Assembly (NCBI GenBank): GCA_023139225.1
Contig: JAGLNZ010000091.1
Coordinates: 1-13,874, forward strand
Length of the DNA: 13,874 bases
Direction of reading: 5' to 3'
Source of the DNA: Desulfobacula sp.
GTDB taxonomy: Bacteria > Desulfobacterota > Desulfobacteria > Desulfobacterales > Desulfobacteraceae
Shown here: positions 1 to 13,469 of the stretch, piece after piece
Layout of the letters: each line of letters begins with the position of its first letter
How positions within the stretch are numbered: the stretch's first letter is position 1
Notes under the pieces: generated by a model
What the model was told of the DNA's origin: nothing
The model's input: only the letters and a program-made list of their open reading frames with translations
Databases searched by the model: none
Position numbers and translations under genes: made by a program

Positions 1-1294
1 TCTTTTCATGGCTGGGTTTGCCCGCAACCTTACTTGGCATAATCCCCAATGCCGTTACAAACACAAGGCTTTTCCCCATGTACCCCGGATGAAACAATAT
101 CTGGCCAAAAGTGGTGGGGACACCGCTTTTATTCCCTCCGTCTTTTACACCCTCTATTACACCGTCAAGAAGGCGTCTGGGATGAAGCGGCGGATTTAAC
201 GGACCATTATAATTTATATCTCCCACACAATACCCAAAACTGCCCATGAACAGCTTTGAACCAAGCCCCGTTCCCATGGGATCACGGTAAACCCCTACAA
301 TGCCTGTTATTGCGCCACCATAGGCTTCCATATTAGAAGGGGAGTTATGGGTTTCGCCTGTAACCACATAATTATTTTCATCATCAAACCTGCCAACCCC
401 TGCATTGTCCCACAACACAGAGACCACCCAGTCTTTTTTCTCTTTAAACTTTAAGGTTGGTTCCTGGATATAGGTTTTAAACAGGTTGTTTTCAATTACT
501 TCTTCGTTATTGGCAGCATCCTTGTATCTGAAAATTCCCTGGAAGGTGTTATGATTGCAATGATCGCTCCTGGCCTGGGAAATGTATTCCAGTTCCAGGT
601 CAGTCGGTTCAAAAAGACCCACTTCTTTTCTGGATTCCATTACTTTTGAATCCAGAAAATACTCCCGAATTACTGGGATATCCCTTGGATTCAATGCCAA
701 ATTTCTTATATCTGAAATTTTTGCAAGGCTTTTATCCGATTCAATACTGATAACTTCAAAACAAGGCGTATGATCAAGAATAACCTTGGCGGGCTTAACA
801 TCCGCCCCACTCTTCTTATTCCATTTTTCAATGGAAAAAACTTTGAATTGCTGAATAATACTATTGGATAAAAGCTCGGAACCAAGTTTTTCCACGTCTT
901 CACGAACAAGTGTGTCACCTTTCAGGCAATAACGTTTTGACGTATATATGCCTTCGTCAGGTCCAAAATTTTTCCCCAAATGGTCTGTAACAGCTTCCAT
1001 TGCTGTTGCACCCGGGTTATCTTTTACCCCGGGTCTGAAACCGATCCAGATACACCAGTCAAAATCAATATCAAGGGGATTTAAGCTTGAAACCTGGGTC
1101 ACAGGGTTAGTGAGAATCTCATCTTTTACCTTTTCAAGCTGCTGCTGGTCAAGATCTGACTCAATGGTCACGATATTGATGCATCGTGCCTCTTGAATGT
1201 TAATTCCGAAATAAGATTTTGCCTTCTTTATCAGAGAAATGCCCTGGGCATCTCTCAGCTCTTTTTTAAGAGCAATCTCAATACATGAAATCAT
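1..1294 (-). CDS. purL: Phosphoribosylformylglycinamidine synthase, PurS-PurL fusion (5' part; 3' end outside window)
   Basis: This is the N-terminal part (431 codons) of FGAM synthase, which converts FGAR, glutamine and ATP to FGAM in cytoplasmic purine synthesis. The frame is open from ATG 1294 to the window edge. Residues about 1-73 look like PurS (a DAQG turn, later a NPV segment), and residues about 79-155 look like a second PurS-like unit (RPGVKDNPGATAMEAV). The catalytic part follows: SDHCNH around residues 243-248 matches the SEHCxH motif, GETHNSPS at 313-320 matches the family ETHNHPS motif with Ser for the second His, and YGGAITGIVGVYRDPMGTG and GGNKSGVP follow. A GGAG ribosome site lies 8 bases before the ATG. 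The gene starts 29 bases after rseP with no terminator visible, so cotranscription is likely. The identification is firm; the glutaminase domain, if fused, would lie outside the window. Confidence 0.93.
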   Translation of the reverse strand, partial: MISCIEIALKKELRDAQGISLIKKAKSYFGINIQEARCINIVTIESDLDQQQLEKVKDEILTNPVTQVSSLNPLDIDFDWCIWIGFRPGVKDNPGATAMEAVTDHLGKNFGPDEGIYTSKRYCLKGDTLVREDVEKLGSELLSNSIIQQFKVFSIEKWNKKSGADVKPAKVILDHTPCFEVISIESDKSLAKISDIRNLALNPRDIPVIREYFLDSKVMESRKEVGLFEPTDLELEYISQARSDHCNHNTFQGIFRYKDAANNEEVIENNLFKTYIQEPTLKFKEKKDWVVSVLWDNAGVGRFDDENNYVVTGETHNSPSNMEAYGGAITGIVGVYRDPMGTGLGSKLFMGSFGYCVGDINYNGPLNPPLHPRRLLDGVIEGVKDGGNKSGVPTTFGQILFHPGYMGKSLVFVTALGIMPSKVAGKPSHEK

Positions 1295-1323
1295 ATTATC
1301 CACTCCATATTATCTGGCCCTAA

Positions 1324-2397
1324 TTATCCAGCATTGGTGAACATTCTTACAATGTCATTATAAAAAACAAAAACCATTAAAGCTACAAGCACAGCCGCAC
1401 CCAATTGAACCAGTTTTTCGCGTAATTTATCACTAACAGCCTTGCCTGTAGCTGCTTCAATACCAAAGAATAATAGATGGCCGCCATCTAACACCGGAAT
1501 CGGAAAAAGATTTATAATACCAAGATTTACAGAAAGCAGTGCAATAAACCAGACAAAACTCATAATTCCCGCTTTTGCCTGTTCACCGGCCATTTGGGCA
1601 ATCATCAAAGGACCGCCCAGGTTGTCTGCCGAGATACTTCCATTGATCATTTTGCCAACGGAAAGTATGGTTAACTTCACAAGCCCGTAAGTATCCTTAA
1701 TGGAATGCCACAGAGCAGCAAAAGGGTTAAGGCTTTTGTGAAAAGACTCCCCTGTACCAACGATACCAATGACATATTTTTCAATTTCTTCACCAAACAG
1801 ATTTTTACCGGGCGCAAGAACCGGGGAAAGAACAATCCCTTTAAGTCTTGTGTCACGCTCGACAATAATTTCCAATTGTTCGCCGCTGCTTGCACTAATA
1901 ATCCGGGCAATGTCTTCAAATGATTCAATTTTGGTTTGGTTTATTTCTTTGATCACATCTCCTGCCCTTATTCCGGCCGTTAAGGCAGGTGTATCTTCCA
2001 TGACTTCACCCACAACCGGTTTAGCCAGGTAAATTCCTGCAAACTGGTAAAGGATATAAAAAATAAAAATGGCCAGTAAAAAATTAAAGAAAGGGCCCGC
2101 TGCTACTACGATACTTTTTTGAAGCAATGATTTGTGAGTAAAAGAAGCCTTTATATCTTCAGGGGCAAGAGTAGCTCCGGGTTCCTCACCCACCATCTTA
2201 ACATACCCGCCAAGGGGTATGGCAGACAGACAATACTGGGTGCGGCCAACTCTCTTTTTTAAAATTTTCGGTCCAAACCCCAGGGAGAACACTTCAACTC
2301 CCACTCCACATAATCTTGCCGCAATAAAATGTCCAAATTCATGAATGAAAACAAGAATGCCGATAACAATTATGAATGCAATAGCAGAATGCCCCAT
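1324..2397 (-). CDS. rseP: RIP metalloprotease RseP (site-2 protease)
   Basis: This is a membrane-embedded zinc protease of the M50 family that cleaves substrates within the membrane; in E. coli it cuts anti-sigma factor RseA and leftover signal peptides. The 357-residue protein carries the HEFGH zinc motif at residues 19-23 in the first membrane helix and the LDGGH motif at 303-307, which supplies the third ligand. A hydrophobic segment at about 92-120 is followed by one PDZ domain at about 125-200 (GIRAGDVI is the typical core), and another membrane helix lies at the C-terminus. Having one PDZ rather than the two of E. coli RseP fits the shorter form common outside gammaproteobacteria. A GAGG site lies just before the ATG. 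The gene sits 23 bases after dxr, the usual place for rseP in this cluster. Its substrate here is unknown. Confidence 0.96.
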   Translation of the reverse strand: MGHSAIAFIIVIGILVFIHEFGHFIAARLCGVGVEVFSLGFGPKILKKRVGRTQYCLSAIPLGGYVKMVGEEPGATLAPEDIKASFTHKSLLQKSIVVAAGPFFNFLLAIFIFYILYQFAGIYLAKPVVGEVMEDTPALTAGIRAGDVIKEINQTKIESFEDIARIISASSGEQLEIIVERDTRLKGIVLSPVLAPGKNLFGEEIEKYVIGIVGTGESFHKSLNPFAALWHSIKDTYGLVKLTILSVGKMINGSISADNLGGPLMIAQMAGEQAKAGIMSFVWFIALLSVNLGIINLFPIPVLDGGHLLFFGIEAATGKAVSDKLREKLVQLGAAVLVALMVFVFYNDIVRMFTNAG

Positions 2398-2420
2398 TAG
2401 ACCTCGCTTTTATGTCACTT

Positions 2421-3569
2421 TTATATTTGGGATTGCACGATGTCACGTGCCCAGCAATCCGCTTCAATAATACCTGAAAGATCTGGATTGTCAATCCGTG
2501 TATGAACTTCCATTGCCCTGGAAATAAGTCTGAAAATATCTGAAAACCCAATGCGTTTTTCAAGGAATGCCTTAACTGCTACCTCATTGGCGGCATTCAT
2601 GACAGCCGGAAGAGTCCCTTTTTGCTTACAGGCCTCAAAGGCAAATAAAAGGGAGGGAAACTTTTGTGTATCCGGTTTTTCAAATGTCAGGGAATGCAGG
2701 CTCGTAAAATCGGGAAAATCCATTTGCAGGTTAAGCCTGTCAGATCCTGACAGGGCATAGGAAATGGCCGTCTTCATATCAGGCTGCCCCATTTGTGCCA
2801 TGATACTGCCGTCTTTATACCCCACCATGGAATGTACAATACTCTGGGGATGAATAAGCACTTGGATTTCTTTATGGGTAACATCAAACAAATGGGCTGC
2901 TTCAATAATCTCAAGACCTTTATTCATCAAAGTAGCTGAATCTATCGTAATTTTATTTCCCATGTTCCAGGTAGGATGATTAAGGGCATCTTTCAGGGTA
3001 ATATCTTTGAAAGCAGCAAAAGGCTTTTCCCTGAAAGGTCCGCCTGAAGCCGTCAAAAATATTGTTTTTAAGTCTTTTTTCTGGTTTCCCTTAAGGCATT
3101 GAAAAATTGCACTGTGCTCACTGTCTACGGGCAGGATTGAAACGCCGTTTTCCAATGCTTTGGCCATGAATAGCTCACCGGCCATGACCAGGGTTTCCTT
3201 GTTGGCAAGTGCAATTTGCTTTTTTGCCTCAATGGCGCAAAGGGCAGGTTTTAGGCCTGCCGCCCCCACCATGGCCAGAAGAACGGTATCTGAATCCGTA
3301 TAAGAGGCTGCTTCAATAAATCCTGCCTCACCAAACAAAATTTGCGGCCTGCACCTTCCTTTTAACAATCGGGATAGCTCCAGGGCTTTATTTTCATCAA
3401 ACACTGCAACCAGTTCAGGTTTAAATTCATCAATCTGTCTGGAAAGACATTCTATATTATTTGCGGCTGTTAAAGCCTTTATCCGGAAAAGATCAGGATG
3501 CATCCGGACAATTTCCAAAGCACTGGTACCGATGGAGCCTGTAGAACCTAATATTGACAAGTATTTCAT
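2421..3569 (-). CDS. dxr: 1-deoxy-D-xylulose 5-phosphate reductoisomerase
   Basis: This enzyme makes 2-C-methyl-D-erythritol 4-phosphate from DXP using NADPH, the committed step of the MEP isoprenoid pathway. At 382 residues it is close to the family norm of about 390-400. The NADPH-binding GSTGSIG lies at residues 8-14. Metal-binding Asp149 and Glu151 lie in PVDSEHSAIFQ, the substrate segment LTASGGPFR at 172-180, HPTWNMG from 198, and SATLMNKGLE at 211-220, where Glu220 would be the third metal ligand. These match E. coli D150, E152 and E231. The start ATG overlaps the cdsA stop as ATGA and has only a weak ribosome site, so translation is probably coupled to cdsA. Isoprenoid precursors made here feed the UppS substrate two genes upstream. 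The symbol ispC is also used. Confidence 0.97.
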   Translation of the reverse strand: MKYLSILGSTGSIGTSALEIVRMHPDLFRIKALTAANNIECLSRQIDEFKPELVAVFDENKALELSRLLKGRCRPQILFGEAGFIEAASYTDSDTVLLAMVGAAGLKPALCAIEAKKQIALANKETLVMAGELFMAKALENGVSILPVDSEHSAIFQCLKGNQKKDLKTIFLTASGGPFREKPFAAFKDITLKDALNHPTWNMGNKITIDSATLMNKGLEIIEAAHLFDVTHKEIQVLIHPQSIVHSMVGYKDGSIMAQMGQPDMKTAISYALSGSDRLNLQMDFPDFTSLHSLTFEKPDTQKFPSLLFAFEACKQKGTLPAVMNAANEVAVKAFLEKRIGFSDIFRLISRAMEVHTRIDNPDLSGIIEADCWARDIVQSQI

Positions 3570-4381
3570 AAAACAAATACCAGGTAGACATATAAAACAG
3601 GAATGGCTAACAATAATCCGTCAATTCTATCGAGCATCCCGCCGTGCCCGGGTAGAATCCGGCCTGAATCTTTAATACCTGAAGCACGCTTCATAGCGGA
3701 TTCAAACAGGTCGCCTATTTGTCCGGCAACAGCAAGCAGAAAACAAGCCGGAATGACAAGAAATGCCAATGACAGATCATTAAAGAAAATCCAGCAAAAA
3801 ATGAATCCTATACCCACGGAAGCTGCGATGCCGCCCAATGATCCTTCAATGGTTTTGTTGGGGCTGATATTAGGAGCAAGGGCTCTTTTCCCAAAGAATG
3901 TACCCGTATAAAATGCACCGGTATCATTTGCAAAATTAACAATCAGCATCCAGATAATCCAAAATGTTCCGCCATCAAGTTCTTTAATAAAAACCAGCAG
4001 AGACAAAGATACCGGGATATAAATAACGCCTAAAACCTGCTTTGCAATAGTATCAAATATGGCATGATTGCTGGCAAACCGTGACAATACAAAAACAGAT
4101 AAGGCTAAAAGGTTCATGGCGAGGATTAAAAACAGAACCTCCCAGGATCCCAGGCAGGCACTGACAATCAATGTCATTGAAACAATATAGGAGATGACCT
4201 TGATGGTTTTGGAAACGGGTACTTCATCATTTCTTAAAATAATTCTTAAATATTCGCGCATGGCAAATATGGCAACAATGGAAACCAGTGCAGCAAGCAA
4301 TAATGTACTGCCCTTTATGAGAATCCATAAAAGTATGGGAACAAGTATGAGTGCGGTTACCCATCGTTTGAAGTGCTGCAT
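3566..4381 (-). CDS. cdsA: Phosphatidate cytidylyltransferase (CDP-diglyceride synthase)
   Basis: This integral membrane enzyme makes CDP-diacylglycerol from CTP and phosphatidic acid, the branch point to all bacterial phospholipids. The 271-residue protein is mostly hydrophobic with about seven or eight likely membrane segments, starting at about residues 8-45. The family signature lies near the C-terminus at residues 228-254: it runs from SAMKR through KDSG and PGHGG to LDRID, and fits the PROSITE CDS pattern at every fixed position. An earlier conserved segment, SPNKTIEGSLGG, is also present. The start overlaps the end of uppS by 25 bases, and the stop overlaps the dxr start by 4 bases, which suggests tight coupling. 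An AAGG site precedes the ATG. Confidence 0.96.
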   Translation of the reverse strand: MQHFKRWVTALILVPILLWILIKGSTLLLAALVSIVAIFAMREYLRIILRNDEVPVSKTIKVISYIVSMTLIVSACLGSWEVLFLILAMNLLALSVFVLSRFASNHAIFDTIAKQVLGVIYIPVSLSLLVFIKELDGGTFWIIWMLIVNFANDTGAFYTGTFFGKRALAPNISPNKTIEGSLGGIAASVGIGFIFCWIFFNDLSLAFLVIPACFLLAVAGQIGDLFESAMKRASGIKDSGRILPGHGGMLDRIDGLLLAIPVLYVYLVFVL

Positions 4382-5118
4382 TCCACCTTACCGAAGCGTC
4401 GGTCCCTTTCCTGAAAATTTTTTAAAATCTCAATGAATTCGTTTTCTGAAAAATCCGGCCACAGGGTGTCACTAATATAAATTTCAGAATATGCTGCCTG
4501 CCATAACAAAAAATTACTTAACCTGTATTCCCCGCTTGTGCGGATAATCAAGTCGGGATCAGGCATTTCTTTTGTGTAAAGGTGATCTGAAATAAGATCC
4601 TGGCTGATATCCTTGTAATCCAGATCTTTTGATTTAATTTTCTTTGCAATCTTTCTTACGGCAGTTGTAATCTCTTCTCTTGAACCATAACTTAATGCAA
4701 GATTCAAAACCATTTTTTTATTATGTTTTGTCAACTGGATTGCAGCGTCAAGTTCTTCTTGAACATCCGTGGGGAGCTTATGCATCTGACCAATGACATT
4801 GAGGCGGATATTGTTTTTTTTCAGCTCTTCTTTTTGGGACACAATAAATTTTTTTAAAAGCATCATTAATGCTTTAACTTCATGTTTAGGTCTGCCCCAG
4901 TTTTCCGTGGAAAATGCATATAGGGTGAGCATCTCTATACCAAGTTTTCCACAGGCTGTCACGATGGATCGGACGGTTTGCGAACCTTGTTCATGCCCTT
5001 TGACACGATTCAGCATTTTTTTTTTAGCCCATCTGCCGTTGCCATCCATGATAATGGCTACATGGGATGGAAGTGTTGCGGGATTAAGAATCACATCATG
5101 TGTTGCGTCAGACTTCAA
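4357..5118 (-). CDS. uppS: Isoprenyl transferase (undecaprenyl diphosphate synthase)
   Basis: This cis-prenyltransferase extends farnesyl diphosphate with isopentenyl diphosphate to undecaprenyl diphosphate, the lipid carrier for peptidoglycan. Counting from TTG 5118 the protein has 253 residues, the usual length. The diphosphate-binding HVAIIMDGNGRWA lies at residues 19-31 with catalytic Asp25. YAFSTENWGRP follows, and RTSGEYRLSNFLLWQ and EIYISDTLWPDF lie near the C-terminus; all are family hallmarks. The TTG at 5118 is chosen because an AAGGA site lies 5 bases upstream; the frame also stays open to another TTG at 5142, which lacks a ribosome site. There is no in-frame ATG before the catalytic motif. 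The start lies inside the end of frr in another frame, so translation was probably coupled to frr. The exact start is uncertain; the function is firm. Confidence 0.95.
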   Translation of the reverse strand: MKSDATHDVILNPATLPSHVAIIMDGNGRWAKKKMLNRVKGHEQGSQTVRSIVTACGKLGIEMLTLYAFSTENWGRPKHEVKALMMLLKKFIVSQKEELKKNNIRLNVIGQMHKLPTDVQEELDAAIQLTKHNKKMVLNLALSYGSREEITTAVRKIAKKIKSKDLDYKDISQDLISDHLYTKEMPDPDLIIRTSGEYRLSNFLLWQAAYSEIYISDTLWPDFSENEFIEILKNFQERDRRFGKVECSTSNDG

Positions 5119-5669
5119 GAATTTCCTTTTCTTTTTTTGCAAAAGATTTCGTCTAATCGCTTAATATATTCATTCAGTGGCTTCCTGGACCTGCTTTTGA
5201 GCCTTAAAACTGTCATCCTCTGAAATATCCCCCTCCTTTTGAAGTTCTTTTAACATTTCGTTGGAATCTCTCCGGATATTTCGAATAGCCACTTTATAAT
5301 CTTCGCATGATCTTGGCCGCACTTTTTACAATCTCTTTTCGTCTCTCTTCTGTCAAAGGCGGTATTGAAATTCTGATTAATTTACCATCGTTAGAAGGTG
5401 TCAGGCCAAGGTTGGCTTTCAAGATCGCCTTTTCGACTTCATTTATCACACTGACATCCCATGGTTTTACAGCAATAAGTCTACTTTCAGGGATGGATAC
5501 GGTTGCCATTTGCGGCAAAGGTGTCTGAGTCCCGTAGTAATCAACTTTAATACCATCAAGTATTGCCTGAGATGCCCTGCCGGTACGAACTTTTGATAAT
5601 TCCTTTATCAAAAGCTTTTTCAGATTTACCCATTCTTTCTTTGGTTTCTTGAAGCACTTCATTTATCAT
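5108..5669 (-). pseudogene. frr: Ribosome-recycling factor gene with four +1 frameshifts
   Basis: RRF works with EF-G to split ribosomes after termination and is normally essential. The start ATG 5669 follows a GAGGA site 9 bases upstream and opens with [20 protein letters not shown], typical of RRF. The frame then breaks four times, each by one extra base: near 5602-5603 (AAAGGAA where AAAGAA is expected), near 5308-5320 (exact base ambiguous), near 5172-5174 (GAATGAA for GATGAA) and at 5141-5144 (TTTT for TTT). Between breaks the sequence is fully RRF-like: [40 protein letters not shown] and KKEKEILEV. The span of 562 bases less four is 558, exactly 185 codons plus a stop, the standard RRF length, and Arg132 falls at its E. 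coli position. As written, only a 122-residue piece (5294-5662) is open. It could be an assembly error, a recent pseudogene or recoding. Confidence 0.9.
5124..5128 (-). promoter_or_regulatory. Ribosome binding site deciding the uppS start
   Basis: The minus strand reads AAGGA, then 5 bases, then TTG at 5118. The alternative TTG at 5142 has no comparable purine-rich site. The site lies inside the last codons of frr, as expected for coupled genes. Confidence 0.55.
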
Positions 5670-5678
5670 AACAATCCA

Positions 5679-5683
5679 TCCTC
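5679..5683 (-). promoter_or_regulatory. Ribosome binding site of frr
   Basis: GAGGA on the minus strand lies 9 bases before ATG 5669. It supports that ATG as the real frr start rather than the out-of-frame ATG at 5662 that opens the 122-residue fragment, since the 5669 start also gives the RRF-typical N-terminus. Confidence 0.6.
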
Positions 5684-5696
5684 AGTTAATGGTTAC

Positions 5697-6419
5697 TTAT
5701 TTGTTATAAATCCGAGTACCAATAGCCTGGCCCCTTACAGCCTTAGAAATATTATCTTCCTTATGAAGATCAAACACCTGCACTGGCAAATCATGTTCCA
5801 TTGCAAGGGAAATTGCGGTCATGTCCATTACGTGAAGTTGTTTTTCAATGACCCTCATATAAGACAATTCATCAAACATGACAGCATCATCATGAACCAC
5901 CGGGTCTTTATCATAGACACCATCAACCTGGGTGGCCTTAAATAGAATTTGAGCCCTTGTTTCATGAGCCCTTAACACAGCTGCCGTGTCCGTTGTAAAA
6001 TAGGGATTTCCCGTACCCGCAGCAAAAATAACCACACGGCCCTTTTCAAGATGCCGAATGGCTTTTCTGCGAATAAACGGTTCTGCAATTCTGTCCATAG
6101 GGATGGCAGACTGCACCCTTGTCGGGACATCACACTTTTCAAGGGCATCACAAAGAGCCAGACTGTTTATAACAGTCGCCAGCATTCCCATATTATCGGC
6201 AGAGGTTCTGTCCATACCGGCAGAACTTCCTGCAACCCCCCTGAATATATTTCCACCACCTACAACGACAGAAATCTGTACGTTAAGACGGTAAACTTTT
6301 GCAATTTCCTCTGCAACATAATGAATCATTTCAGGGGTAATGCCAAAGCCCTGATTTCCCATCAGGGCTTCCCCGCTCAGCTTAATTAAAACCCGTTTAA
6401 ACTCCGGCTCTTTGTTCAA
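5697..6419 (-). CDS. pyrH: UMP kinase
   Basis: This hexameric bacterial UMP kinase of the amino-acid-kinase fold phosphorylates UMP to UDP with ATP in pyrimidine nucleotide synthesis. Length is 240 residues, the family norm. KLSGEALMG at residues 13-21 is the phosphate-binding start, [10 protein letters not shown] follows, then [17 protein letters not shown], and [16 protein letters not shown] is the nucleotide and acceptor segment. GVYDKDP lies near the ATP site. The start is TTG at 6419, only 4 bases after the tsf stop; its AGGAG site lies within the last tsf codons. The protein start [16 protein letters not shown] fits family starts. It is part of the rpsB-tsf-pyrH-frr cluster, a very conserved order. 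Confidence 0.97.
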
Positions 6420-6423
6420 GATT

Positions 6424-7020
6424 CTATTCTCCTATCTGGAAACGTACAAATCTTTTTATTTGAATATTTTCACCGATTTTACCAATGGTTTCTTTTAATA
6501 AATCAGTAATGGTTTGCTGGGGATCTTTTACATATTGCTGGCTCATCAGGCAGACTTCTTTATAAAATTTCTCCACTTTACCTTCAACAATTTTGTCAAT
6601 AATATTCTCGGGTTTACCTTGTTCAAGCATTTGTGCACGGAAAATCTCTCTTTCCTTTTCAACAACTGCCAAATCAACATCTTCAGGATTCAGACCTACA
6701 GGATTTGCTGCGGCGACATGCATGGCAATATTTTTTACAAACATCTGGAAATCTTCTGTTTTGGCAACAAAATCAGACTCACAATTCACCTCAATAAGAA
6801 CACCTAATTTAGAACCGGTATGAATATAAGAATAAATCAGGCCTTCAGATGTTGTACGACCGGCTCTTTTTGCGGCTTTAGCCAGGCCTTTTTTTCTTAA
6901 AAGATCGATTGCTTTTTCCATATCACCTTCTGCATCAGTAAGAACTCTTTTGCAGTCCATAATACCTGAACCGGTTGCGGAACGAAGCTCTTTTACCATT
7001 GCTGCGGAAATTTGCACCAT
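6424..7020 (-). CDS. tsf: Translation elongation factor Ts (short form)
   Basis: EF-Ts exchanges GDP for GTP on EF-Tu during protein synthesis in the cytoplasm. The N-terminal UBA-like domain is clear at residues about 4-40 ([20 protein letters not shown] is a signature). The EF-Tu-contacting [13 protein letters not shown] follows at about 79-91. The protein is 198 residues, against about 283 in E. coli. The core ends after one subdomain with a [10 protein letters not shown] tail, so this is the short class known from Thermus and many deltaproteobacteria, not a truncation. ATG 7020 follows an AAGGAG site. It sits 18 bases after rpsB, the near-universal partner. Confidence 0.97.
6429..6433 (-). 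promoter_or_regulatory. Ribosome binding site supporting the TTG start of pyrH
   Basis: AGGAG on the minus strand lies 9 bases before TTG 6419, inside the final codons of tsf. It supports the non-ATG start and suggests that pyrH translation is coupled to tsf. Confidence 0.55.
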
Positions 7021-7038
7021 TTTCTTTACTCCTTATCT

Positions 7039-7890
7039 TTACTCAGTCGCTTCTGGCTCTTCGACTGGTGTTGTTCTTCTTTTAATCTTTTCAACGACAG
7101 GACCATCCGTACCATCCGACACTACTTCGATCGTCGCTTTTTCATCGGAAAAATCTTTATTTTCTTCTGCTCCGCCTTTATCGGATTCAGCTTTTTGTTT
7201 TTCTTCATAAAGCGCTCTTCCTTCGATACAGGCATCTGCAACACTGGAAGCAAAAAGCCGGATGGCTCTGATTGCATCATCATTTCCAGGAACCACATAA
7301 TCGATATCATCGGGATCACAGTTTGTATCAACAACAGCAACAATAGGGATTCCAAGTCTTTTACCCTCTTTCACGGCTATGGCTTCATTTTTGGGATCAA
7401 TAATAAAAATCGCTCCGGGCAATCTTTTCATATGACTGATACCGCCAATGGCAAACTCCAGCTTGTCTTTTTCTTTGAGCATTTTTGATTGCTCTTTTTT
7501 CGGATAATTTTCAAGACTTCCGTCATTTTCAATTGACTTTAAAAAATGGAACCGGGTGATATTATTCTTAATGGTCTGAAAGTTGGTCAGCATACCACCA
7601 AGCCACCGGTTCTGTACATAGAACTGTTCAGCACGATTTGCTTCTTCATAGATTGCTTCGGACGCCTGTTTTTTTGTCCCGACAAAGAGGACGTCCTGAC
7701 CATTGGCTGCCACACCTTTAATAAAATCATGGGCGGTTTTGAATAATTTGACAGTCTGCTGAAGGTCAATGATGTAAATTCCATTTCTTGCTCCAAAGAT
7801 ATATTTTTTCATCTTTGGGTTCCAGCGTTTGGTCTGATGCCCGAAATGCACACCAGCTTCCAAGAGTTCTCTAATTGTAATGTAAGCCAT
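7039..7890 (-). CDS. rpsB: 30S ribosomal protein S2, with acidic C-terminal tail
   Basis: S2 is a late-assembling small-subunit protein that anchors S1. The first 225 residues or so are canonical: [20 protein letters not shown] at the N-terminus, [43 protein letters not shown], and [20 protein letters not shown], then [14 protein letters not shown]. From about residue 230 to 283 there is a low-complexity, Glu/Lys-rich tail with few hydrophobic residues. Tails of this kind occur in many S2 proteins and vary widely. ATG 7890 has a GGAG site 6 bases upstream. It is the first gene of the large cluster, with a 147-base upstream gap that should hold its promoter. Confidence 0.97.
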
Positions 7891-8037
7891 TTGTTCTCCA
7901 GTTAATTAAGGTTTTTTTCCACCACTCAGATCATCCTTGAAATTCGACTTTTTTCAAAGCACCTGATTTTCAAGTCCCTGAATGTGAGTTTTTATAATCC
8001 AACAAAAATCCTAATTTATATATCAAAAAAAACTTTT
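7891..8037 (-). other. Upstream region of rpsB
   Basis: This 147-base AT-rich gap separates prmC from rpsB and is the natural place for the rpsB promoter and for end-of-transcript signals of prmC. On the minus strand it begins with A6-G-T8, which could act as a weak terminator after prmC, and contains a TATAAA about 90 bases before the rpsB start with no good -35 box. A 7-base inverted repeat, CTTGAAA and TTTCAAG, lies in the likely leader about 26 bases apart. No call is firm. S2 regulates its own operon in E. coli; whether this leader does so is unknown. Confidence 0.35.
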
Positions 8038-8952
8038 TTAATCAATTGATTTTTTAATTAAAATCACTCTGTTATGTCCGGCAAGATCCCTTATAAATTC
8101 AATGGATTGGTACTCGGGATATGGTTTTAAAATATTTTGAACCCCTTTTTTTTGATCAAAGCCCATTTCAAGCAGTATTGTTCCCCCGGGAACAAGATAA
8201 TGATGAACATCTTTTAAAATAGACCTGAAACTATCAAGCCCGTCCCTGCCGCCATCAAGGGCAAGCATGGGTTCGAACCGCCTTATTTCCGGCTGCAGGT
8301 TTTGAATATCCCCGGTGGGGATATAGGGTGGATTGGAAATGACCAGATCAAATCTCGGGTCAAATCCAGGAAATTTCTTTAATGATGATAACCAGTCGCC
8401 GACAAAAAAACTGATCTTATCTTTCATCATTCCCGGGAGTAATTTTTGGGCATTTTTTTTTGCAATTGCAAGTGCTGCAAAAGATATATCGCTTGCATAA
8501 TACACATGATCGGGATTTTTTTTTGCCAAAGAAACGACAATCGCACCGGAACCTGCCCCCAATTCAAGGACAGTCTTAGGTTTGAAATCTTTTTGCCGGG
8601 CATTTAATACTTTTAATGCTTGTTCAACAATAGTTTCAGTATCAGGCCGGGGGATCAGAACACCTTTTTCCACTTCAAAATCAGATTCAAAAAATCCTTT
8701 TTCCCCAATAATATATGCAACCGGCTCGTTTTGTATTCTTCTTTTGATTAACGCCTTAAAACGGGATAACTCATTTTTCTGAAGGGGACGGTCATGCTGA
8801 AGATAAAGATCAATCTGCTTTATGCCAAGACAATGGGCAAGCAGCATTTGGGCTGTCAATCTGGGGCTGTCAATGGAATGGTCTTTAAAATAAGATTCTG
8901 TCCAGGAAAGAATCTTAATGATGGTCCAGTCATTCGATTTATTTTCCGGCAA
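8038..8952 (-). CDS. prmC: Peptide chain release factor N5-glutamine methyltransferase
   Basis: PrmC uses S-adenosylmethionine to methylate the Gln of the GGQ motif in release factors 1 and 2, which speeds peptide release. Length is 304 residues, slightly above the usual 280-290. A small helical N-terminal domain covers about 1-75 and docks the release factor. It is followed by PVAYIIGEKGFFESDFEV and VLIPRPDTE. The SAM-binding LELGAGSG lies at residues 129-136 and the catalytic NPPY at 207-210. The start is TTG 8952, five bases after the prfA stop, with only a weak GAAGAAA before it; no ATG is available until about residue 36. The gene directly follows its substrate gene prfA, the usual arrangement. 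Confidence 0.95.
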   Translation of the reverse strand: MPENKSNDWTIIKILSWTESYFKDHSIDSPRLTAQMLLAHCLGIKQIDLYLQHDRPLQKNELSRFKALIKRRIQNEPVAYIIGEKGFFESDFEVEKGVLIPRPDTETIVEQALKVLNARQKDFKPKTVLELGAGSGAIVVSLAKKNPDHVYYASDISFAALAIAKKNAQKLLPGMMKDKISFFVGDWLSSLKKFPGFDPRFDLVISNPPYIPTGDIQNLQPEIRRFEPMLALDGGRDGLDSFRSILKDVHHYLVPGGTILLEMGFDQKKGVQNILKPYPEYQSIEFIRDLAGHNRVILIKKSID

Positions 8953-8957
8953 TTTCT

Positions 8958-10022
8958 TCAGGCAATTTCCTTTAATGCCTGTGCCCGGGTCTGTGTTGTA
9001 AGCTCATCAATAATTTCCTGAATATTGCCTTCCATGATACTGTCCAGCTTATAAAGCGTAAGGCCGATTCTATGATCCGTCATTCGGCCTTGAGGAAAAT
9101 TGTATGTCCTGATCCTGCCGCTTCTATCCCCTGTGCCCACCTGCCCTTTTCTCTGGGCCGCTCTTTTACCTTCCTCTTCTCTCACCTTGGCGTCAAGGAT
9201 ACGGGAATTAAGAACATTCATGGCTTTGGCCTTGTTTTTATGCTGGGATTTCTCATCCTGGCACGTAGCTGTAACACCGGTTGGGATATGGGTAATCCTG
9301 ACCGCAGAGTCTGTTGTATTTACAGACTGCCCGCCGGGCCCTGAAGACCTGAACACATCAATTTTAAGATCAGCAGGATTGATATCAATATCAATATCTT
9401 CTGCCTCGGGAAGGACGGCCACGGTAACAGCAGAGGTATGAACTCTTCCCTGGGCCTCTGTTTCAGGCACTCGCTGGACACGATGGGTGCCGCTTTCATA
9501 TTTAAAACTGCTGAAGGCTCCCTTCCCGCGCACCAGAAATACAATTTCTTTAAACCCGCCCGAGCTGGAGTCATTTTTCTCAACAATCTCCATGGTCCAG
9601 TTTTTGGATTCAGTATACCTTGAGTACATTCTGAACAAGTCGCCGACAAAAATACCTGCCTCTTCTCCACCGGTTCCAGCCCGGATCTCAAGGAGAACAT
9701 TTTTACTATCTCTGGGATCTTTGGGTATCAAAAGAAAATTGAGTTGAGATTTTACAGCCTGTATTTTTAAGTCAAGGCCCGGTATCTCTTCTTTGGCCAT
9801 GGCCCGTATTTCAAGGTCATCATCCTTTAAAAATTCTTTTGCCTCTTTGAGCTCTTCCAAAAATCCTTCATATTCTCTGAACATTGGAACAATTTTATTG
9901 AGTTCCCCATGTTCTATCAAATACTCCTGGTATTTTTTCTGATCACTAATGACAGCCGGATCACTCAAGAGCTGCTCAAGCTTGATAAATCTTTCTTCAA
10001 TGCCTTTTAATTTTTCTATCAT
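8958..10022 (-). CDS. prfA: Peptide chain release factor 1
   Basis: RF1 reads UAA and UAG stop codons in the ribosomal A site and triggers peptide release. Length is 354 residues (E. coli 360). The codon-reading PxT motif is Pro-Glu-Thr at residues 186-188 within RVPETEAQGRVHTSA. The catalytic GGQ lies at 230-232 (SSGPGGQSVNTTDSA). CQDEKSQHKNKAKA follows, as expected for RF1. The PxT motif, as opposed to SPF, distinguishes it from RF2. The ATG at 10022 has little ribosome-site character. A terminator-like hairpin lies 14 bases upstream, between rpmE and prfA, so prfA may have its own promoter or depend on read-through. prmC, which methylates this protein, follows. Confidence 0.97.
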   Translation of the reverse strand: MIEKLKGIEERFIKLEQLLSDPAVISDQKKYQEYLIEHGELNKIVPMFREYEGFLEELKEAKEFLKDDDLEIRAMAKEEIPGLDLKIQAVKSQLNFLLIPKDPRDSKNVLLEIRAGTGGEEAGIFVGDLFRMYSRYTESKNWTMEIVEKNDSSSGGFKEIVFLVRGKGAFSSFKYESGTHRVQRVPETEAQGRVHTSAVTVAVLPEAEDIDIDINPADLKIDVFRSSGPGGQSVNTTDSAVRITHIPTGVTATCQDEKSQHKNKAKAMNVLNSRILDAKVREEEGKRAAQRKGQVGTGDRSGRIRTYNFPQGRMTDHRIGLTLYKLDSIMEGNIQEIIDELTTQTRAQALKEIA

Positions 10023-10035
10023 AATTCAAAAACTC

Positions 10036-10066
10036 AAAAGGGGTTCTTTAAATCAAGACCCCTTTT
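10036..10066 (-). terminator. Hairpin between rpmE and prfA, probable intrinsic terminator
   Basis: AAAAGGGG-TTCTT and AAGA-CCCCTTTT pair with one bulged base around a loop of about 6 bases. Runs of A and T flank both sides, so it could work in either direction. On the minus strand the T-run after the stem is interrupted (TTTTGAGTTTTTG), so termination after rpmE may be partial. Confidence 0.6.
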
Positions 10067-10068
10067 TT

Positions 10069-10090
10069 GATTACAAATTGATTACAAATT
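10069..10090. repeat. Tandem duplication of an 11-base unit
   Basis: GATTACAAATT occurs twice in direct head-to-tail succession between the rpmE stop and the hairpin. It probably arose by slippage; no function can be read from it. Confidence 0.8.
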
Positions 10091-10101
10091 ACTAAAAAGT
10101 G

Positions 10102-10320
10102 CTAAATGAGTTTTGTTGCGTCAAACCCTGCATATTTCTTTTTGAAACGATCAATTCTTCCGGCAGTATCAACCAGCTTTTGTTTTCCGGTGAAGAAAGG
10201 ATGACACTGGGAACAAATTTCCACTTTGATATTTTCTTTTGTGGACCCAACTTCAAATTTTGCACCACAAGCACAAGAAGCTGTAGATCTTGTGTATTTT
10301 GGATGTATATCTTTTTTCAT
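10102..10320 (-). CDS. rpmE: 50S ribosomal protein L31, zinc-binding type
   Basis: L31 forms a bridge between the subunits at the central protuberance. At 72 residues it has the normal length. Cys16, Cys18, Cys36 and Cys39 ([12 protein letters not shown] and [14 protein letters not shown]) form the zinc site, so this is the zinc-containing paralog type and not the Cys-less type induced under zinc limitation. MKKDIHPKY at the start is typical. The AAGGAG site lies 11 bases before the ATG, slightly far. A small stem, TGCCT with AGGCA, sits just before that site and may influence initiation. It follows rho by 61 bases. Confidence 0.97.
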
Positions 10321-10381
10321 CTGTCTTAAAACTCCTTACCATGCCTTATTTCAGGCAATCATTTAATTCTTAACTCTAAAC

Positions 10382-11629
10382 TTATGAATTCATCAATTCA
10401 AGAAACTCTTTATTATCCTTTGTTCCTTGCATTTTTTCAAGTAAAAACTGCATGCTGTCTACAGAATTTAGACTCGACAACAATTTTCTTAAGATCCAAA
10501 CACGGTTCAAGACCATTGGATCAAGCAGCAATTCCTCTTTTCTCGTCCCTGATTTATTCATATCAATGGCAGGGAAAACTCTTTTATCCGCAAGTTTTCT
10601 ATCCAGAACAAGCTCCATATTACCCGTGCCTTTAAATTCTTCAAATATGACTTCATCCATACGGCTTCCAGTATCAACCAAGGCTGTTGCGATAATGGTC
10701 AGACTCCCGCCATCTTCGATATTTCTTGCTGCACCGAAAAATCTTTTGGGTCTGTCAAGGGCGTTGGAATCCACACCACCGGAAAGAATCTTACCCGACG
10801 GCGGCATCACGGAGTTATATGCCCTGGCAAGCCTTGTAATACTGTCAAGCAGTATCACAACATCATGACCCTGCTCTACAATTCTTTTAGCCTTTTCAAT
10901 GACCATCTCCGCCACCTGGACATGTCGTTCCGACGGTTCATCAAAAGTAGAACTGACAACTTCGGCATCAACATTTCTTGCCATATCGGTCACTTCTTCG
11001 GGGCGTTCATCAATCAGGACAATCATTGGGATGGCATCCGGATGGGCTTTAACCATACTATTGGCAATATTCTGCAACAGCATGGTTTTACCCGCCTTTG
11101 GCGGAGACACAATCAAACCGCGCTGACCAAAGCCTATGGGTGACATTAAATCAATCACGCGCATGGCGTAATTGTCCGATTCAGCCTCAAGATTCATTTT
11201 TCGATCAGGATAAAGGGGCAATAAATTATCAAAAAGAATGGTTTCAGCAGCAAGTTCAGGATTTTGAAAATTAACGGCCTCAACTTTCAGCAATGCAAAA
11301 TATCTTTCAGAATCTTTGGGTTGTCGAACCTGGCCGGAAATTGTATCACCGGTTCTTAAATTAAACCTTCTGATTTGTGAAGGGGATACATAGATATCAT
11401 CAGGGCCGGGGAGATAATTATATCCCGGGGCTCTTAAAAATCCAAAACCGTCAGGGAGAATTTCAAGCGTGCCTTCACCATAAATCTGACCGCTTTCTTC
11501 AATATTTGCCTGGAGCAATGCAAAAATCAAGTCCTGTTTTTTAAGCCCGCCAATCCCTTTGATTTTGTATTCCTTAGCAAGCTTGGTCAACTCACTAATC
11601 TTCATCTTATTTAAGTCTACAAGGTTCAT
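10382..11629 (-). CDS. rho: Transcription termination factor Rho
   Basis: Rho is a hexameric RNA helicase that loads on C-rich, untranslated RNA and pulls RNA polymerase off DNA. Length is 415 residues (E. coli 419). The N-terminal helix domain is at about 1-45 (Rho_N). The cold-shock-like RNA-binding domain spans about 48-118, with DGFGFLR and the [13 protein letters not shown] segment. Walker A PPKAGKT lies at residues 176-182, Walker [17 protein letters not shown] begins near 257, and the secondary RNA-binding Q- and R-loop regions follow. There is no insertion of the kind seen in actinobacterial Rho. GGGAG precedes ATG 11629. The 153-base gap upstream contains a 10-base direct repeat. Confidence 0.98.
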
Positions 11630-11676
11630 TCATTCTCCCAAAATTTGTTTTATTATCTTTTACAGGCTAAAGTTTG

Positions 11677-11701
11677 TTTTTGAAGTGCACCTTTTTGAAG
11701 T
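11677..11701. repeat. Direct repeat pair upstream of rho
   Basis: TTTTTGAAGT occurs at 11677-11686 and again at 11692-11701, with GCACC between, a period of 15 bases. On the minus strand this lies about 50-75 bases before the rho start, in the leader or promoter region. It could be a regulatory site or chance in AT-rich DNA. No confident promoter was found around it. Confidence 0.5.
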
Positions 11702-11782
11702 CTAAAAACCAAAAATGACATGAAAAAACAGACAGATATTTTGAAATTTATTGTTTAATTTTTGATTAATAAGGCAAAAATT

Positions 11783-12397
11783 TCACGTTGTCAAGAATTC
11801 TTTTTGGATTTTGTTAAAGAGATTGTCAACAGATTCAAAGAGTTCAGACCTTGTCCCCTTGTTGAAAACAACATGGTCCGCCCTTGCCATTTTATCTTTC
11901 TGGGGCATTTGAAGATCAAGTATCTTTTGGGCATCTTTTTTTGCAACATTGTCCCGATCAGAAATTCTTTCAACAAGATCCAACTCCTGTGCCGTGACAG
12001 CAATCGTGACATCAAATTGCTTCTCCATGCCTAATTCAAACAACAAAGGCACCTCGACAACCACGGCTTTTTTATCCTTAAACTCAGCATTCTCCATCTG
12101 GAAAACCATTTCTTTGATAATCTGAGGATGTAAAATATTCTCCATTTTTTGTCGTAATGTTAGATCACTTACAATGATATTTCTCAGTCTTGCCCTGTCC
12201 AGGGTTCCATCTTTTCGGACCACCTTTTGGCCAAACAATTCAACGATCTTTGTAAACCCGGGCATTCCAGGCTCTACAATCTGTCTTGCAATCACATCAC
12301 AATCCAAAGTGACCAGACCCATCGCTTCAAATCTCCGGCATACAAGACTCTTGCCGGAGCCTGCCGATCCTGTAACTGCAATCCTTAAAATTTTCAT
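11783..12397 (-). CDS. coaE: Dephospho-CoA kinase
   Basis: CoaE phosphorylates the ribose 3' hydroxyl of dephospho-CoA, the last step of coenzyme A synthesis. Length is 204 residues, the family norm. The P-loop GSAGSGKS lies at 10-17, with LDCDVIARQIVEPG after it for substrate binding. NILHPQI is at about 106-112. EVPLLFELGME is the lid-adjacent segment, and the C-terminal RISDRDNVAKKDAQKIL and FNKGT motifs are typical. No ribosome-site sequence is visible in the bases before ATG 12397; the leader is AT-rich (TTTCAAATATA), so initiation may be weak or leaderless. It is the first gene of the coaE-rho-rpmE-prfA-prmC run and is divergent from ndk. Confidence 0.96.
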   Translation of the reverse strand: MKILRIAVTGSAGSGKSLVCRRFEAMGLVTLDCDVIARQIVEPGMPGFTKIVELFGQKVVRKDGTLDRARLRNIIVSDLTLRQKMENILHPQIIKEMVFQMENAEFKDKKAVVVEVPLLFELGMEKQFDVTIAVTAQELDLVERISDRDNVAKKDAQKILDLQMPQKDKMARADHVVFNKGTRSELFESVDNLFNKIQKEFLTT

Positions 12398-12458
12398 TAT
12401 ATTTGAAACATAGATAACTGCATATTGTTTCGTTTAAATTAGTGTGCCAGCATAAATA

Positions 12459-12487
12459 TTGACTATAATACGGTTCTATGGTAGTTT
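12459..12487 (+). promoter_or_regulatory. ndk: Possible sigma-70-type promoter of ndk
   Basis: TTGACT at 12459-12464 and TAGTTT at 12482-12487 are 17 bases apart and lie 40 bases before the ndk start. The -10 box is weak. A better-looking TATAAT at 12464-12469 lacks a -35 box at the usual distance. Which of the two is used cannot be decided by reading. Confidence 0.4.
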
Positions 12488-12526
12488 TCAAGACCGTTTA
12501 CAATAATAATTGAAAGGATTTGGATT

Positions 12527-12946
12527 GTGGAAAGAACATTATCAATAATAAAGCCCGATGGCGTTGCAAAAAACGTGATTGGTGAAGTAATCAAACGGTT
12601 TGAAACCGATGGCATTAAAATTGCCGCCATGAAAATGATTCAGCTTACAAAAACACAGGCTAAAGGATTTTATGCCGTTCATAAAGAACGCCCGTTTTTT
12701 GACAGCTTGACGGATTTTATGACTTCAGGACCAATTGTTGTGATGGTTCTTGAAGGAGAAGATGTGATTGCAGGGAACAGAAAACTCATGGGTGCTACCA
12801 ATTTTGAGGAAGCTAAAGAAGGCACTATCAGAAAAGATTATGCAACGAATATAGAAAAAAATGTTGTTCATGGTTCTGATGCACCTGAAACAGCCGCTTT
12901 TGAAATCGGATATTTTTTCAATGATCTTGAAATCCAGAGAAGATAA
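12527..12946 (+). CDS. ndk: Nucleoside diphosphate kinase
   Basis: Ndk moves the gamma phosphate of ATP to other NDPs through a phosphohistidine, balancing NTP and dNTP pools. Length is 139 residues (norm about 140). [16 protein letters not shown] is the N-terminal signature, [17 protein letters not shown] binds nucleotide, and the active-site His115 lies in [12 protein letters not shown]. The usual MGATDP is MGATNF here, a mild change. The start is GTG at 12527 with an AAAGGA site 8 bases upstream; no ATG fits better. It is the only plus-strand gene, with its own upstream promoter candidate and a strong terminator after it. Confidence 0.97.
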
Positions 12947-12961
12947 TATCCTTATATTTAT

Positions 12962-13009
12962 AAAACCAGAACCGCAGTCTGGCTTTTATTTTTCCGCTGC
13001 GGTTTTTTT
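12962..13009. terminator. Double, overlapping terminator between ndk and the convergent PPC gene
   Basis: Two hairpins share sequence. The first pairs CCAGA (12966-12970) with TCTGG (12978-12982), flanked by AAAA and TTTT and followed by a T-rich run. The second pairs AACCGCAG (12970-12977) with CTGCGGTT (12997-13004) and runs into TTTTTTT. The two cannot form together. The T-runs suit ndk on the plus strand, and a TTTT after the CCAGA stem suits the opposite direction, so it probably stops both genes. Confidence 0.75.
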
Positions 13010-13025
13010 ATTTCCTGACATTGTT

Positions 13026-13469
13026 TCAGGGCATCAAAAGATCAAACCCCGTCGCAGCATCCTTTTTTCTCACGCCGGTTGAGTCTAAAAGCTCATGGAG
13101 AATGATCTCCATCACATGCCACACCTTTACCCCGTTTCTGACACAGCCTGTTACGGTTGAGGAGCCTCTGCCACAGGCCATATGCATATGAAGAACCGGC
13201 TCACCTTTTTCATCGGGAAAAAGTGTACCCGTCCCTGCAACCTCATGAACATCATCAAGTATATGCACCTTGGGTACTATCTGTTGGGCTCTGCCCCGGG
13301 CAGGACCCGTGACCAGTACACTTTCAGTATCTGCTCCACCCAAAACAATCAAAGATGCTGCTTTAATTTCATTCTTTTTTGCAAATTTTTCAATTTCTTC
13401 ATGTAAAATATCACCATCTTCAAGCCTGATGACAAATATCCGGCCTGGTTTGGCCAAAGAATATTTCAT
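13026..13469 (-). CDS. PPC (DUF296) domain protein
   Basis: This is a small (147-residue) stand-alone PPC/DUF296 domain protein. In plants the same fold is fused to AT-hook DNA-binding motifs; bacterial versions lack AT-hooks and have no established function. Some crystallised members are trimers with a metal site. Visible here are RIFVIRLEDGDILHEEIEKF at residues 10-29, KAASLIVLGGADTES at 37-51, a His at 75, and the HMH motif at 94-96 followed by GRGSSTVTGCVRNG, the usual end of the fold. No signal peptide, membrane segment or AT-hook is seen. An AAGGA site overlapping the larE stop lies about 9 bases before ATG 13469. It follows larE by 12 bases, so the two are probably cotranscribed; whether they work together is unknown. 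Confidence 0.88.
   Translation of the reverse strand: MKYSLAKPGRIFVIRLEDGDILHEEIEKFAKKNEIKAASLIVLGGADTESVLVTGPARGRAQQIVPKVHILDDVHEVAGTGTLFPDEKGEPVLHMHMACGRGSSTVTGCVRNGVKVWHVMEIILHELLDSTGVRKKDAATGFDLLMP

What the first reader, a model, noticed from the sequence alone, without database searches (positions are those of the whole stretch)
5108..5669. Four single-base insertions break the essential frr gene while all other genes are intact
Reading the minus strand, RRF coding sequence switches frame at codons about 22/23, 117-120, 165 and 175. Each switch is one extra base, and each can be explained as duplication of a neighbouring base (G to GG, A to AA, TTT to TTTT, one site ambiguous). Removing four bases leaves exactly 185 codons plus a TGA that overlaps the uppS start, and the protein pieces show no missense decay. 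No other gene in about 13 kb has a frameshift, so a uniform error rate does not explain it. Options are a local assembly or consensus artefact, a very recent pseudogene with a functional frr elsewhere, or translational recoding.
Basis: partly seen in the sequence, partly recalled or inferred. Interest (0 to 1): 0.8.

Follow-up and report, generated by a model that had tools for sequence, protein, structure and literature searches.

The report
Assembly patch breaks one essential gene
The broken ribosome-recycling gene is most likely not real biology: an error-bearing 0.8-kb piece close to a sister species seems to have been spliced into this metagenome contig.

Summary
In detail: frr (5108-5669, minus strand) carries four single-base frame breaks; no other gene compared shows a clear interior one. 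The window is a whole contig of a 752-contig, 77%-complete draft, genus inferred as Desulfobacula. Window 5110-5936 (827 bp: first codons of the uppS reading, all but the last two bases of frr, the 3' third of pyrH) matches sister genome G025 with 3 mismatches in 823 columns; the rest of the aligned contig has 1580 in 12,093. Both edges are sharp. In trees the patch pairs with G025 (100/99); in both flanks the G025 clade forms without the window. All four breaks lie in this 6% of the contig. In 92 of 92 other genomes with an RRF match it has no internal stop. No second frr or native copy was found in the held assembly. Best explanation: a gap was bridged by low-quality sequence from a G025-like population, with its insertion errors left in. 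Real recombination, pseudogene or recoding are less likely. Not a real feature; raw reads would settle it.

The parts
5110..5936 (.). Foreign-looking patch: near-identical to sister genome G025 inside a contig otherwise about 13% diverged from it
   Evidence: 3 mismatches in 823 columns inside, 1580 in 12,093 outside; best 820-column window outside is 91.5% against 99.6% inside; tree discordance
5108..5669 (-). frr (ribosome recycling factor) reading frame, broken at four places by single-base insertions
   Evidence: Pfam PF01765 on its longest open piece
5140..5145 (-). frame break, one extra base in a T run (minus strand)
5173..5174 (-). frame break, one extra A (minus strand)
5308..5308 (-). 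frame break, one extra base, not extending a run
5602..5607 (-). frame break, one extra base, not extending a run when compared with G025
5697..6419 (-). pyrH, open, but straddles the right edge: residues 1-161 of the contig's own lineage, residues 162-240 G025-like
   Evidence: 6 of 161 against 0 of 79 residues differ from G025; weak alone, the DNA contrast is strong; PF00696
4357..5142 (-). uppS reading frame, open; only its first codons (5110-5142) lie in the patch

Best explanation
The four breaks are sequence errors inside a chimeric assembly patch. While the contig of this genome was built, about 0.8 kb across frr and the end of pyrH was supplied by one or a few low-quality reads, or a poorly corrected fragment, from a co-occurring population close to G025. 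It joined at conserved sequence, and its insertion errors stayed because no deep coverage corrected them. The different ancestry and the sharp edges of the patch are shown. That it is an assembly event, and the read-level mechanism, are inferred.
For: Sharp island: the longest stretches without a mismatch to G025 (indels not counted) are 320, 258 and 201 positions, all inside 5110-5936; the next longest is 62. G025 against G006 is 0.94-0.97 across the four 250-base rows of the block, within its range elsewhere in the contig, so the block is not merely conserved and G025 is not the chimera. Trees: island = window + G025 (100/99); in the right and left flanks the G025 clade forms without the window (100/99 and 98/97). 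All four breaks, and no clear interior one in other genes compared, are in the patch. Against the 8 nearest genomes the patch has five private differences, four insertions and one substitution, a spectrum more like sequencing error than decay. RRF without internal stops in 92 of 92 other genomes with a match. No other copy of this region in the assembly. The left edge sits on a 25-base word (5110-5134) present in 15 of 22 same-genus loci, a possible false overlap. The genome is a fragmented draft (752 contigs, 77.08% complete, 3.52% contaminated), and neighbouring contig numbers (C744-C745, C746-C747, C105-C106, C111-C114-C115-C116) lie next to each other in the same orientation along G025, which suggests contigs cut from scaffolds at gaps, hence a pipeline that handled gaps.
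Against: No raw reads or coverage could be seen. No second such patch was found in the 43,083 aligned columns from other contigs, so it is not shown to be a habit of this assembly. Two of the patch's three substitutions against G025 are shared with other relatives, and in one alignment of the 5140 site there is one more such difference, so the donor would be a near relative of G025, not G025 itself; that this population was in the sample is not shown. The conserved word at the edge would suit homologous recombination equally well.
Confidence: 0.9

Rival explanations
1. Real gene conversion: the organism took up about 0.8 kb from a G025-like donor by homologous recombination, and the four insertions are separate sequencing or consensus errors, so its frr is really intact.
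For: Tract length and sharp edges fit bacterial recombination (general knowledge); the flanking genes stay in place.
Against: It needs two independent local events; the errors would have to fall by chance only in the recombined tract, while no other gene compared in the contig has a clear interior frameshift.
Confidence: 0.07
2. A true recent pseudogene: frr was replaced and then broken, with a working copy in the unassembled part of the genome.
For: The assembly is 77% complete, so a second copy could be missing.
Against: One RRF match per genome in 92 of 92 other genomes with a match; four insertions against one private substitution is not the usual pattern of pseudogene decay (general knowledge); no other RRF match in the assembly.
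Confidence: 0.02
3. Translational recoding: the ribosome or polymerase slips at four places to make full-length RRF.
For: Nothing beyond the pieces together covering RRF.
Against: The insertions are absent from the 15 same-genus genomes aligned; two of four do not extend a run; none of the 120 best-listed protein hits, of 7989, has the truncated length (173-197 aa).
Confidence: 0.003

Closest known systems
Interspecies chimeric contig in a metagenome-assembled genome (general knowledge)
   Same: A block with another species' ancestry inside a contig, sharp edges, fragmented draft
   Different: Short (0.8 kb) and internal, with own-lineage sequence on both sides, and carrying its own frame breaks
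Frameshift errors from low-coverage or uncorrected reads (general knowledge)
   Same: Single-base insertions break an otherwise conserved essential gene
   Different: Confined to one foreign-looking block instead of spread through the contig
Homologous recombination tract (gene conversion) between bacterial species (general knowledge)
   Same: Tract length, conserved position, tree discordance
   Different: Would have to deliver or acquire a broken essential gene with no other copy seen

Membership tests
Chimeric assembly patch | Local ancestry differs from both flanks | tested here: met
Chimeric assembly patch | Sharp edges | tested here: met
   nearest mismatches outside at 5109 and 5937
Chimeric assembly patch | Reads or coverage do not support the junctions | not testable with these tools
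   no reads held
Chimeric assembly patch | Other patches of the same kind in the same assembly (helpful, not required) | tested here: not met
   none in the 22 alignments (43,083 columns) of other contigs; 67 of 752 contigs given, this one included
Pseudogene with a second copy | Intact second frr in the genome | tested here: inconclusive
   none in the held assembly, which is 77% complete
Programmed or tolerated recoding | Frame-break sites conserved in relatives | tested here: not met
   absent from 15 of 15 same-genus genomes aligned; 92 of 92 other genomes' RRF matches without internal stops
Programmed or tolerated recoding | Breaks lie on slippery runs | tested here: not met
   two of four do not extend a run
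Ribosome recycling factor (PF01765) | Pfam RRF match above cut-off | tested here: met
   144.2 bits against a cut-off of 29.7 for the longest open piece; two pieces over the cut-off

The most novel reading that the evidence does not exclude
A real transfer of frr and the end of pyrH between species some 13% apart in this region, after which the four insertions arose and are tolerated in the cell, by slippage or by a second frr in the missing quarter of the genome.
Probability: 0.02. Interest if true: 0.75.

Novelty: not a real feature. Interest (0 to 1): 0.08.

Why it matters
As biology it most likely does not. As a caution it shows how an apparently broken essential gene in a metagenome-assembled genome can be a short interspecies splice, and that comparing local ancestry with the flanks reveals it without reads. 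It also makes pyrH of this contig a mosaic gene that should not be used in trees.

Tried and rejected
A second frr in the genome: none found. Recoding: rejected. The idea that frr is simply more conserved than its surroundings: rejected, because G025 and G006 differ in the block about as much as elsewhere. The idea that G025 holds the foreign piece: rejected, G025 stays with G006, G024 and G010 in all three trees. PyrH at the protein level: 6 of 161 and 0 of 79 residues differ from G025, which is only a weak contrast by itself. Widespread frameshifts in this assembly: a crude script flagged 29 indels not divisible by three in 49,160 coding columns, 11 in this contig and 18 on other contigs, several of them compensating pairs. 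I looked at five of the 18: L070:943 and L261:2552 look like gene boundaries; the other three show no clear broken gene; the other 13 were not examined singly, so a low rate of frameshifts elsewhere is not excluded. The paper search on chimeric contigs was seen as a listing with abstract starts only and gave nothing I rely on, likewise, did not help to name the organism. The uppS scan of genome contigs returned only distant loci (best 64%); its note says that near records may be left out.

Full report
WHAT WAS CLAIMED.

THE OBSERVATION. It is right. The span from the start at 5669 to the TGA at 5110-5108 is 562 bases, 186 codons plus four. The Pfam RRF model matches in two overlapping pieces, 5237-5605 and 5128-5337, with stops inside. 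Against each of the sister genomes G025, G006, G024 and G010 there are exactly four one-base insertions in frr. Other indels against G025 that are not multiples of three lie between genes or in the C-terminal tails of rseP and rpsB, or add up to a multiple of three; 13,023-13,462 did not align to G025 and was not compared. All four insertions are absent from 15 of 15 same-genus genomes aligned. Two lengthen a run of the same base; the ones at 5308 and 5607 do not, so the statement that each is a duplication of a neighbour holds for about half of them.

WHERE IT COMES FROM. The window is the whole of contig C744 (13,874 bases) of a draft genome with 3,537,278 bases in 752 contigs, completeness 77.08%, contamination 3.52%. 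These are environmental sulphate-reducing bacteria (recalled).

THE KEY RESULT. The breaks lie in a block of different ancestry. Between 5110 and 5936 the window differs from G025 at 3 of 823 ungapped columns, plus the four insertions; in the rest of the main alignment (window 1-13,022) it differs at 1580 of 12,093. The change is abrupt: mismatches are dense up to 5109 and from 5937 on. The three longest stretches without a mismatch, 320, 258 and 201 positions, lie in the block; the next longest is 62 (indels not counted). Of 10,454 sliding windows of 820 columns outside the block, the best reaches 91.5%; in the block it is 99.6%. The block is not simply conserved: G025 and G006 differ there about as much as elsewhere.

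TREES. Trees of 21, 20 and 22 rows were built for the block, the right flank (5937-7200) and the left flank (3600-5109), out of the window and 22 genomes given. In the block the window pairs with G025 (100/99) inside the G025-G006-G024-G010 clade (100/100). In the right flank that clade forms without the window (100/99), which falls, weakly, with G004, G023 and G014 (82/70). In the left flank the clade again forms without the window (98/97). With such small counts this is weak by itself.

OTHER COPIES. In the 97 genomes, this one included, 93 have an RRF match; the 92 others each have one match, without internal stops. Four genomes (G009, G017, G022, G041) show none; their listed completeness is 68-81%. 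In this genome no RRF match lies outside the contig, and neither the frr DNA nor the corresponding G025 region finds another place. Of 7989 hits to the longest broken piece the 120 best were listed; none has its length of 122 residues, all are 173-197. So no independent assembly is seen to carry this broken form, within the limits of those 120 rows.

INTERPRETATION. The coincidence of foreign ancestry, sharp edges and all the frame breaks in one 0.8-kb block is best explained by one event: a gap in the organism's own contig was bridged by low-quality sequence from a co-occurring G025-like population. Against the eight nearest genomes the block has only five private differences, four insertions and one substitution, which looks more like sequencing error than decay. 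The left edge lies on a 25-base word found in the window and in 15 of 22 same-genus loci, which could serve as a false overlap. Contigs of this draft with neighbouring numbers lie side by side and in the same orientation along G025: C744-C745, C746-C747, C105-C106 and C111-C114-C115-C116, with distances of 2 to 118 bases between the aligned ends. That suggests contigs cut from scaffolds at gaps, so that gap bridging in this assembly is plausible (inference). Which sequencing method made the errors cannot be told.

RESULTS AGAINST. A survey of 67 pieces of this genome (341,328 bases, this contig included) against 61 pieces of G025 (921,768 bases) gave 23 alignments of 500 columns or more and 55,999 columns, 43,083 of them outside this contig; no other block of this kind was found. 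The patch is therefore a single case, and real recombination with separate sequencing errors stays possible (about 7%). The donor is near to G025 but not G025 itself, and its presence in the sample is not shown. Raw reads were not available.

VERDICT. A true observation with, most likely, an ordinary cause: a chimeric, error-bearing assembly patch. Not a biological feature.

Noticed in passing
5697-6419: pyrH of this contig is a mosaic of two lineages at the DNA level (edge at 5936/5937) though its frame is open; an ordinary annotation would probably not flag it.
   Followed up: yes
L211 (G025 contig C30) against L264, L267, L268, L269; also L063, L159, L199: Contigs of this draft with neighbouring numbers align side by side, same orientation, along G025 with 2-118 bases between aligned ends, as if scaffolds had been cut at gaps.
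   Followed up: partly
7039-7050: The last codons of rpsB differ from the four nearest genomes by a net indel not divisible by three, giving a different, probably harmless C-terminal tail.
   Followed up: no
1304-1339 and 10066-10089: Small insertions between or at the ends of genes relative to G025; at 10066 a 12-base unit appears twice in the window and once in G025.
   Followed up: no
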